This document shows, in pieces, positions 28,084 to 30,134 of a DNA stretch of 38,266 nt. The position numbers and the translations under genes are program-made. Numbering within the stretch: the first letter of the stretch is position 1; every line of letters begins with the position of its first letter. The stretch comes from Candidatus Bathyarchaeota archaeon (GTDB taxonomy: Archaea > Thermoproteota > Bathyarchaeia > Bathyarchaeales > Bathycorpusculaceae). Location: positions 30,877-69,142 of the forward strand of contig PLNS01000017.1 in NCBI GenBank assembly GCA_003141855.1, given 5' to 3'. Under the pieces are notes generated by a model that was not told the DNA's origin, made no database searches, and worked only from the letters and a program-made list of their open reading frames with translations.

Positions 28084-28455
28084 TCGGCAACACATCCGCA
28101 AAACTAATCTACACCCAAGCCAAAAACCCTCATAACCGGTGGCTTACCAAGTTATTCTGTAGCATGCGAACAAGTCTTTGATGAAACTAAGCATATCCGC
28201 AAAATTACTCTCGATGGAAAAGTCCATAATAACAATAAGATGGAGCGCATGAACGGTGAAATCCGAGACAGGGAAAAGACAATGAGAGGACAAGAAGAAA
28301 CGCACCGTTATCCTCAAGGTTACCAACTATATCACAACTACATCCGACCACATGAAGCCCTTGATGGAAAGACACCCTCAGAAACATGTGGCATTGTAAT
28401 TGAAGGGCAAAATAAATGGAAAACACTAATACAGAATGCAAGTAAAAGTGCCTGA
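28084..28455 (+). pseudogene. Decayed DDE transposase, C-terminal part
   Basis: The frame 28108-28455 encodes the end of an rve/IS6-like transposase: KTLITGGLPSYSVACEQVF, KMERMNGEIRDREKTMRG, YHNYIRPHEALDGKTPSE. The second catalytic Asp, expected in the LITDGLPSY strand, is Gly here, while the third acid (Glu in KMERMN) remains. The frame has an in-frame TAA at 28105-28107, and the homologous protein appears to continue upstream in another frame (AKLIYTQA), so there is also a frameshift. There is no N-terminal DNA-binding region. The remnant is inactive. Confidence 0.8.
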
Positions 28456-28501: not shown

Positions 28502-28511
28502 CCTTATATTT
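28502..28511 (+). promoter_or_regulatory. TATA box of the ribbon-helix-helix gene
   Basis: CCTTATATTT at about 28502-28511 lies some 35 bases before ATG 28543. Two earlier ATGs (28525 and 28528) would be at or before the transcription start. Confidence 0.55.
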
Positions 28512-28542
28512 AGTATTCACTATTATGATGTGGGGAAAAATC

Positions 28543-28710
28543 ATGGGACGATTGAATCTTTCCGTCAAAGATGACGTAGAGAGCAGATTCAGAGAAACAG
28601 TTTTTAAGAGACGTGGAATGAAAAAGGGAAACCTGACCGAATCTTTGGAAGAAGCAATGCTAATGTGGATTAATGTTCCCCCGAAAGATGAAGGAAAGAT
28701 TCATAAGTAA
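28543..28710 (+). CDS. Ribbon-helix-helix DNA-binding protein
   Basis: This 55-residue protein has the MetJ/Arc-type layout: N-terminal beta-ribbon GRLNLSVKDD, then helix 1 (VESRFRETVFKRR) and helix 2 (NLTESLEEAMLMWI). It would dimerise and bind a short palindrome. ATG 28543 is preferred over 28525 because GGGG precedes it and the ribbon begins right after it. It heads a same-strand cluster (DUF5678, protease, membrane protein) and may regulate it or act as an antitoxin, although no toxin is recognisable next to it. Confidence 0.78.
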   Translation: MGRLNLSVKDDVESRFRETVFKRRGMKKGNLTESLEEAMLMWINVPPKDEGKIHK

Positions 28711-28749
28711 TTAATATAATTAGAGATTGACTTTATTTGGGGATAAAAA

Positions 28750-28956
28750 ATGACCAACAAGAAAGACGAATTTGAGTGCTTACTATCAATGCCTGATTTG
28801 GGAAACTATGTAGGTAAGTGGATAGTGATTGTCAACAATGCAATTATCTCTACAGGAACAGTCGCCAAAGAAGTATTTGCAGAAGCCAAGCGTAAATGCC
28901 CTGACAGCAAACCATTATTATTAAAAGTGCCTCAAGAGTCTGCAATGCTACTTTAA
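28750..28956 (+). CDS. DUF5678-family protein
   Basis: This 68-residue protein matches the DUF5678 pattern: a Tyr/Gly-Lys-Trp turn (NYVGKWIVIVNNAIISTG), a helix (AKEVFAEAKRKCP) and the end strand PLLLKVPQES. The family has no known function but in my knowledge is often encoded right before a retropepsin-like protease, as here with 17 bases between stop and start. ATG 28750 has GGGGAT ahead of it. A TATA-like TTAATATAATTA at 28711-28722 may give it its own promoter. Confidence 0.75.
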   Translation: MTNKKDEFECLLSMPDLGNYVGKWIVIVNNAIISTGTVAKEVFAEAKRKCPDSKPLLLKVPQESAMLL

Positions 28957-28973
28957 ACAATGGATGACCTGTA

Positions 28974-29444
28974 TTGTCCAATAATCGGCACTACATACCA
29001 GTAAAATGTCGGTATTTGGATTACAGATTGCCTGATGGTCACGTTATCTTTTTACCGTTGATTCATGTTGAACTCTCTTCTGATACTGAAACATTGACTA
29101 CAATAGGTTTGTTAGATTCAGGCGCTACGAATAGTTTCATCCCTTACGAGATAGCAGACATTTTGGGCATTATACCTGAGCAACCAGCTTGCACTGACGT
29201 TGAAACAGCGGGAGGATCGTGCTCTTTTATTCAAGCATCACTAAAAAAACTCTCACTACTGGCAGGAGGAAGACAATATTCAGAATTTCCCACCATCCGA
29301 ATATTGATTCCATCGCAAGAAAGAGACTTACCCTATGTTATCCTTGGAAGAGATTATGTTTTTAAGCGATTTCACATTACGTTCAAAGAAAATATCAATA
29401 AATTCGAACTTTGCCACCATAAAATCGCAAATCAACGTCATTGA
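28974..29444 (+). CDS. Retropepsin-like aspartic protease
   Basis: This protein of about 156 residues is half the size of pepsin and so should work as a homodimer, as retroviral proteases do. The catalytic loop is LLDSGATNSFIP (D48-S49-G50-A51), a flap-like TAGGS lies at 78-82, and the hydrophobic-hydrophobic-Gly element YVILGRD at 121-127 supports the active-site loop. No signal peptide or membrane helix is present, so it is cytosolic. The start is taken as TTG 28974; an ATG at 28960 opens another frame for only 14 codons. It follows DUF5678 in one operon; its substrate is unknown. Confidence 0.8.
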   Translation: MSNNRHYIPVKCRYLDYRLPDGHVIFLPLIHVELSSDTETLTTIGLLDSGATNSFIPYEIADILGIIPEQPACTDVETAGGSCSFIQASLKKLSLLAGGRQYSEFPTIRILIPSQERDLPYVILGRDYVFKRFHITFKENINKFELCHHKIANQRH

Positions 29445-29467
29445 AGCTATGCTGGTAGTGACCAAAG

Positions 29468-29872
29468 ATGGAAATAGGTAGCGCTTTGACAATAATCAGC
29501 ACTGTTACATCAATTATTACGGCAACCGTTCTTATCTTTACTTACCATCAGAATATAAAACAAAATAAGCCTCAATTTGACCTTACATCTGTTTACACTG
29601 GTCTTCCACCTAACAGAAAACCACATGGTTTCCATATACAGAATCCCACTAAGCCCATAGTGCATTGTCAAGTCTTTTGCAACGGTGTTCCTCTTGAGAC
29701 TCCGTTTGGTGTACACTTTCAAAAATGGGTTTACATACACGCGGGCGGGGCAGCAGATTTCATTTTACCTGATGACCTTGCCGATATAGATAATGCAACT
29801 ATTGAAGTTAAAGATGGAAAGAAAAACATTTATCCAAAAACTAAAATCAAGGACGTACCTTATGTTCTTTGA
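29468..29872 (+). CDS. Single-pass membrane protein of unknown function
   Basis: This 134-residue protein has one N-terminal helix (about 7-26) followed by a basic turn (YHQNIKQNK) and a soluble domain of beta character with two cysteines (VHCQVFCNG). The charge balance suggests that the C-terminal domain is cytosolic. It follows the protease gene by 23 bases on the same strand and is likely co-transcribed. No family is recognised. A T-tract after the stop (about 29886-29892) probably ends the operon. Confidence 0.6.
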   Translation: MEIGSALTIISTVTSIITATVLIFTYHQNIKQNKPQFDLTSVYTGLPPNRKPHGFHIQNPTKPIVHCQVFCNGVPLETPFGVHFQKWVYIHAGGAADFILPDDLADIDNATIEVKDGKKNIYPKTKIKDVPYVL

Positions 29873-29899
29873 TTGCCTTTAACCGATTTTTTACATGGA

Positions 29900-29920: not shown

Positions 29921-29936
29921 ACAGAACCCTTGGCGC

Positions 29937-30134
29937 CTATATATAAGGGGGCTATAGAAAAAAATTGCAGGTAGGTCCAGCGGATCTGGAAGCGTTTTGG
30001 TGTTGCTTGTGGCTGTTTGCACAACCAGCCTGCAACCTGGAGCGGTCGCGGATGGCAAAACACGGTAAGTTGCTTTGTCTGTTGGTTGTTGTTGTGGTAT
30101 AGGGAAGTTTCAGTTACAACTTCTATAGAAAAAA
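29937..30134 (+). other. TATA-driven structured segment flanked by 12-base direct repeats
   Basis: The stretch 29873-30238 has no convincing protein gene. It holds a strong TATA box (CCTATATATAAGG, 29937-29949). From about 29965 a segment with strong pairing follows: TTGCAGG (29965-29971) with CCTGCAA (30029-30035), extended by GGT/ACC, enclosing CCAG-loop-CTGG (29977-29989), AAGC/GCTT and TGTG/CACA stems. The sequence CTATAGAAAAAA occurs at 29952-29963 and again at 30123-30134. A hairpin (GAAGTT 30104-30109, AACTTC 30118-30123) abuts the second copy. It may be a non-coding RNA or a regulatory leader; no known RNA family was recognised. Confidence 0.45.

What the first reader, a model, noticed from the sequence alone, without database searches (positions are those of the whole stretch)
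28502..29890. Ribbon-helix-helix, DUF5678, retropepsin and membrane protein cassette
Four small same-strand genes with tight spacing sit next to a dead transposase. The DUF5678 protein (function unknown) is directly followed by a cytosolic dimer-type aspartic protease with DSGA and ILGRD motifs, then by a one-pass membrane protein. A protease paired with a small dedicated partner and a DNA-binding protein could form a regulated-proteolysis module, for example DUF5678 as substrate, inhibitor or adaptor. This is the strongest candidate for an undescribed system here.
Basis: partly seen in the sequence, partly recalled or inferred. Interest (0 to 1): 0.62.

Follow-up and report, generated by a model that had tools for sequence, protein, structure and literature searches.

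The report
Archaeal small-protein and retropepsin pair
Across many archaea a small protein of unknown function (DUF5678) sits directly in front of an HIV-protease-like enzyme, often with a DNA-binding ribbon-helix-helix (RHH) domain, which looks like an undescribed protease-and-keeper (toxin-antitoxin-like) module.

Summary
The window (Bathyarchaeia-like) encodes an RHH protein, a DUF5678 protein (PF18929, 44 bits) and a retropepsin (PF13650, DSGA...ILGRD), tightly spaced on one strand. The fourth gene, a one-pass membrane protein, is not conserved with them (4/257 class genomes, none beside a DUF5678 hit). The DUF5678-retropepsin link is not local. Of about 104 evaluable DUF5678 genes found by a DUF5678 search in Thermoproteota, about 78 (75%) have a retropepsin directly downstream, and several more have only remnants. 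The RHH is either a separate gene just upstream (6 distinct loci) or fused to DUF5678 (6-8 loci). The same RHH type occurs in VapB-like antitoxins before PIN toxins. An AlphaFold2 model of a natural read-through DUF5678-protease pair gave pTM 0.83, suggesting a defined contact. Most stand-alone DUF5678s end in a free, hydrophobic, apparently flexible tail. Neighbouring genes include toxin-antitoxin families. I judge it most likely a toxin-antitoxin-like or regulated-proteolysis module, with DUF5678 holding the retropepsin in check and RHH autoregulating. Inhibition, toxicity and substrates are inferred, not shown. I found no publication on it in the open library. PADLOC lists two candidate defence pairs of similar size whose larger gene resembles these proteases, but DUF5678 matches neither small partner.

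The parts
28504..28513 (+). TATA-box-like sequence TTATATTTAG, likely operon promoter
   Evidence: read directly; about 30 nt before ATG 28543; not tested
28525..28710 (+). Small ribbon-helix-helix protein (likely start ATG 28543: MGRLNLSVKDD...)
   Evidence: RHH_6 E=0.0072, sub-threshold; homologues directly upstream of DUF5678 in L014, L015, L028, L031, L080 and fused to DUF5678 in L061, L069, L084, L112, L141, L148
28750..28956 (+). DUF5678 protein, 68 aa, ends ...SAMLL
   Evidence: PF18929 1.5e-11, 44.4 bits; AF2 fold a-b-b-a-b with a less confident C-terminal tail
28974..29444 (+). Retropepsin-like aspartic protease, 156 aa, TTG start
   Evidence: PF13650 1.6e-5, above cut-off; family profile hits Rickettsia APRc, FIV PR and Ddi1 in PDB; start supported by alignment with L017
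29468..29872 (+). One-pass membrane protein; adjacent, NOT part of the conserved module
   Evidence: only 4 of 257 class genomes have a relative, none at a listed DUF5678 place
28240..28455 (+). Integrase-core (rve_3) transposase fragment, neighbour
   Evidence: PF13683 E=2e-4, below cut-off

Best explanation
The unit is a compact toxin-antitoxin-like module. The retropepsin, presumably a homodimer, is the effector. DUF5678, made first and often translationally close-coupled, binds the protease and holds it inactive. In the common stand-alone form a free hydrophobic C-terminal tail (..MLL, ..LIL, ..NFLF) may occupy the substrate cleft or dimer interface like a cleavage product. The RHH domain, separate or fused to DUF5678, binds the operator and autoregulates the operon. 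Loss or removal of DUF5678 would free the protease to cut a cellular or viral target. Shown: pairing, order, spacing, RHH fusion and adjacency, tail conservation, patchy distribution, retropepsin motifs. Supported by prediction only: a physical contact. Inferred: inhibition, autoregulation, toxicity, trigger and target.
For: Pairing: of about 104 evaluable DUF5678 genes found by DUF5678 searches, about 78 have a retropepsin immediately downstream, gaps mostly -10 to +60 nt. Reverse direction: 44 of the 70 best protease hits have a PF18929 hit upstream, and 6 of 20 fetched others have a diverged or truncated one. RHH just upstream in 6 distinct loci and fused in 6-8. The RHH HMM also hits L069 and L103 ORFs that precede PIN-domain ORFs, a VapBC-like arrangement. 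Profile distances of partners correlate (r=0.71, Mantel p=2e-4). AF2 on a read-through pair: pLDDT 87, pTM 0.83 with a disordered linker. Tail: 58 of 84 protease-paired DUF5678s end in two VILMFY residues (13% expected by composition), and the tail block has pLDDT 64. Patchy: 58/257 class genomes; the window's protease has no relative in 31 congeners. Decay: proteases are broken while DUF5678 is intact at about 10 loci plus remnants, the reverse at one. Neighbours include PIN, MazE and DUF2283 families, at most 1 each in controls.
Against: No functional data. A subfamily of intact retropepsins lacks any DUF5678 (L101, L102, L104, L105, L107), so the protease fold does not always need it. Most DUF5678s lack an RHH. 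RHH-fused DUF5678s lack the hydrophobic tail, so the tail is not universal. The pTM argument has no negative control and PAE was not visible. Decay counts are small (roughly p~0.02 against gene length, my estimate) and MAG errors could contribute. Part of the mirror-tree correlation is expected from linkage alone. The two neighbour gene sets differ in mean ORF length (173 against 241 aa).
Confidence: 0.5

Rival explanations
1. Regulated proteolysis: DUF5678, or the RHH-DUF5678 regulator, is the substrate. On a signal the retropepsin cleaves it and de-represses target genes, as ImmA does to ImmR.
For: RHH-DUF5678 fusions look like a repressor with a partner domain; the conserved tail resembles retropepsin-type hydrophobic sites; the COG2856-Xre precedent is described in PMC2701414.
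Against: Most DUF5678s have no DNA-binding domain. The tail ends exactly at the hydrophobic residues, leaving almost no residues beyond a cut. No signal-sensing domain is seen in these small proteases.
Confidence: 0.25
2. DUF5678 is an adaptor or chaperone that folds, dimerises or delivers substrates to the protease in ordinary protein turnover.
For: Strict pairing, predicted contact, small size.
Against: Patchy distribution, loss in congeners, decay and TA-type neighbours do not fit housekeeping; DUF5678 without an intact protease persists at about 20 loci.
Confidence: 0.15
3. Anti-viral abortive-infection system in which protease release upon infection kills or blocks the host cell, related in design to PADLOC candidates PDC-M52 and PDC-M08.
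For: The window protease matches PDC-M52B (1.3e-8) and others match PDC-M08B (to 1.4e-6); the small partners PDC-M52A and M08A are 86-position models.
Against: DUF5678 and RHH-DUF5678 do not match the A models. The PADLOC systems are untested candidates. No link to defence islands was tested beyond TA-type neighbours.
Confidence: 0.1

Closest known systems
COG2856 (ImmA/IrrE)-Xre protease-regulator modules (PMC2701414)
   Same: Small protease paired with or fused to a DNA-binding partner, classed among TA-like systems
   Different: Zn metalloprotease (HEXXH) with an Xre HTH; here an aspartic retropepsin with DUF5678 and an RHH
Archaeal VapBC type II toxin-antitoxin
   Same: Related RHH domain followed by a partner-binding part, effector gene downstream, similar spacing and patchiness
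   Different: Effector is a protease, not a PIN RNase; DUF5678 replaces the VapC-binding tail
PADLOC candidates PDC-M52 and PDC-M08
   Same: Small gene (86-position model) plus retropepsin-like gene
   Different: DUF5678 does not match the small partner models; those systems are untested predictions
APRc (ApRick) of Rickettsia, Ddi1 and retroviral proteases
   Same: Retropepsin fold and motifs
   Different: No DUF5678 or RHH partner known to me; different biological context

Membership tests
Clan AA retropepsin-like (PF13650) | Profile score above curated cut-off | tested here: met
   25.9 against 24.3 bits
Clan AA retropepsin-like (PF13650) | D-S/T-G catalytic motif and hydrophobic-hydrophobic-Gly motif | tested here: met
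   DSGA, ILGRD; catalytic D48 invariant in 33 aligned proteins
Clan AA retropepsin-like (PF13650) | Retropepsin fold | tested here: met
   AF2 model of the about 40%-identical relative L014 matches 5c9f, E=2.9e-6
Clan AA retropepsin-like (PF13650) | Proteolytic activity as homodimer | not testable with these tools
   needs biochemistry
DUF5678 (PF18929) | Profile score above cut-off | tested here: met
   44.4 against 23.2 bits
Ribbon-helix-helix | Profile score above cut-off | tested here: inconclusive
   RHH_6 17.4 against 27 bits; a related ORF 23.1; homologous to VapB-like RHH ORFs
Type II toxin-antitoxin | Two small tightly linked genes, regulator/antitoxin first | tested here: met
Type II toxin-antitoxin | DNA-binding domain in the antitoxin | tested here: inconclusive
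   fused or adjacent RHH at a minority of loci
Type II toxin-antitoxin | Patchy, multi-copy, mobile distribution | tested here: met
   58/257 class genomes, up to 4 copies each; window module absent from congeners
Type II toxin-antitoxin | Effector toxic alone and neutralised by partner | not testable with these tools
   needs expression test
COG2856-Xre (ImmA/IrrE) | HEXXH zinc protease with Xre partner | tested here: not met
   aspartic DSGA protease; RHH/DUF5678 partner
PADLOC PDC-M52/M08 | B component match | tested here: met
   PDC-M52B 1.3e-8; PDC-M08B at E up to 1 in 20/33 relatives, best 1.4e-6
PADLOC PDC-M52/M08 | A component match | tested here: not met
   no DUF5678 (39 members) or RHH-DUF5678 protein matches an A model at E up to 1; no significant A-model match in 8 carrier genomes

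The most novel reading that the evidence does not exclude
A new class of toxin-antitoxin or abortive-infection module in archaea whose effector is an HIV-protease-like aspartic protease, kept inactive by a DUF5678 protein acting as a product-mimic inhibitor through its C-terminal tail.
Probability: 0.3. Interest if true: 0.85.

Novelty: new variant of a known kind. Interest (0 to 1): 0.6.

Why it matters
It gives DUF5678, a family with no described function that I could find, a consistent partner, and gives many prokaryotic retropepsins, whose roles are largely unknown, a likely control mechanism. If confirmed it would be a genetically encoded protein inhibitor or antitoxin of a retropepsin and an aspartic-protease-based archaeal TA or defence module. 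The prediction is directly testable by co-expression.

Tried and rejected
Membrane gene as module member: rejected. DUF5678 related to a known fold: no PDB match by sequence or by fold (best E 0.95). PHROGs: no match. DUF5678 as PDC-M52A or M08A: no match. Mixed DUF-only and protease-only alignments misaligned; solved by trimming the protease rows. Literature: no paper on DUF5678 function, and none joining retropepsin with antitoxin. Spread outside Thermoproteota was not tested, beyond no PF18929 match at E<=1e-3 in 14 control genomes.

Full report
OBSERVATION. The window (G000:C18:30877-69142; closest named relative of the protease a Ca. Bathyarchaeota MAG at 55% identity) carries four + strand ORFs: RHH 28525-28710, DUF5678 28750-28956, retropepsin 28974-29444 and a one-TM protein 29468-29872. 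Pfam gives PF18929 at 44.4 bits for DUF5678 and PF13650 at 25.9 bits (cut-off 24.3) for the protease; RHH_6 is sub-threshold. The protease starts at TTG 28974, the first start codon after an in-frame TGA, and aligns with the N-terminus of its relative L017.

IS THE GROUPING MORE THAN CHANCE? The nearest protease relatives (L014-L017) all have DUF5678 immediately upstream, and three (two of them near-identical) also have the RHH. In 257 genomes of the class, PF18929 occurs in 58. Fetching those places and iterating a protease HMM showed retropepsins directly downstream of most. A phylum sample (398 genomes, 43 positive) gave the same picture in other classes. In the final census 112 distinct DUF5678 ORFs were classed; 6 of these came from the protease search, and one near-identical group (L015 and copies) was left out. 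Of the other 106, two end at a contig edge; of about 104 evaluable, about 78 have retropepsin sequence directly downstream. Several of the rest show short protease remnants by eye (for example L070, L083, L075, L127, L060, L071). In reverse, 44 of the 70 best protease hits have a DUF5678 hit upstream, and 6 of 20 fetched others have a diverged or truncated one. With only a few retropepsins per genome, chance adjacency would be well under 1% (my estimate).

WHAT BELONGS. The RHH is a separate gene directly upstream in the window, L014, L015, L028, L031 and L080, and is fused to DUF5678 in L061, L069, L084 and L112 and in L141 and L148. L074 and L138 are similar; L074 has a weak RHH_1 match. The same RHH model hits ORFs in L069 and L103 that are followed by PIN-like ORFs, so the DNA-binding part belongs to the VapB type. 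The membrane gene has relatives in only 3 other genomes of 257, none at a listed DUF5678 place, and is not part of the module.

STRUCTURE. DUF5678 is predicted as a small a-b-b-a-b domain (pLDDT 82) with a less confident C-terminus. It has no PDB match by sequence or fold. In L014 the two genes are in frame and separated by one TGA codon, so a read-through translation could be folded with a mixed alignment: pLDDT 87.3, pTM 0.83, and only the linker (64-77) below 50. My estimate is that an undefined domain orientation would give pTM of about 0.6, so a defined contact is predicted. The protease part matches the Rickettsia retropepsin 5c9f (E=2.9e-6). Of 84 protease-paired DUF5678s, 58 end in two residues from VILMFY against 13% expected by composition; most exceptions are RHH-fused forms or other subfamilies. 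This tail is a reasonable candidate for the protease-binding element (inference).

EVOLUTION. Partner distances correlate (r=0.71, Mantel p=2e-4, 31 pairs), so pairs travel together. The distribution is patchy, with up to 4 copies per genome and no relative of the window's protease in 31 congeners. Proteases are split or truncated beside an intact DUF5678 at about 10 Bathyarchaeia loci (for example L019, L037, L048, L054, L056, L058, L066, L077, L086) plus remnants, while an intact protease beside a truncated DUF5678 was seen once (L096). This is suggestive only. Among 150 neighbouring ORFs, PIN (6), PIN_3 (3, possibly the same ORFs), DUF2283 (3) and MazE (2) were the repeated TA-type families; in 150 control ORFs each occurs at most once.

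MECHANISM. The best reading is a protease effector held by DUF5678, with RHH autoregulation (0.5). The main rival is cleavage of DUF5678 or RHH-DUF5678 as a substrate in a signalling switch, like ImmA/ImmR (0.25). Adaptor or chaperone (0.15) and dedicated anti-viral function (0.1) follow. Against an obligatory inhibitor for the whole fold: a subfamily of retropepsins without DUF5678 exists (L101, L102, L104, L105, L107).

KNOWN SYSTEMS. The closest published analogue I found is COG2856-Xre (PMC2701414), a different protease class and partner. PADLOC's PDC-M52 and PDC-M08 pair a small protein (86-position models) with a B protein that matches these retropepsins, but DUF5678 does not match the small partners. 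PDCs are described as candidates from guilt by embedding, mostly not yet validated (PMC12988326). No paper in the open library describes DUF5678 or a retropepsin-antitoxin pair. Absence from that library is not proof of novelty.

Noticed in passing
window 29934-30110: A promoter-like element (CCTATATATAAGGGGGCTATAGAAAAAAAT) recurs at least 7 times in the genome; three copies (window, L005, L007) also share about 25 bases downstream (GTTGGTTGTTGTTGTGGTATAGGGA), perhaps an unknown small RNA. No Rfam or tRNA match and no unusual folding energy.
   Followed up: partly
L101, L102, L104, L105, L107: A subfamily of intact Bathyarchaeia retropepsins with no DUF5678 partner upstream.
   Followed up: no
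L100: A retropepsin of this family 31 nt downstream of a 126-aa protein that looks like a winged-helix regulator, a possible alternative regulator partner.
   Followed up: no
L116, L132, L145, L053: Loci with two DUF5678 genes: tandem or divergent pairs, or two DUF5678s near one protease.
   Followed up: no
L055 (G000:C27) and L051 (G000:C12): The window's own genome carries a second DUF5678-retropepsin pair of another subfamily and a DUF5678 without an intact protease.
   Followed up: partly
L061, L069, L103: VapB-like RHH ORFs near the module or its protease; in L069 and L103 a PIN-like ORF follows.
   Followed up: partly
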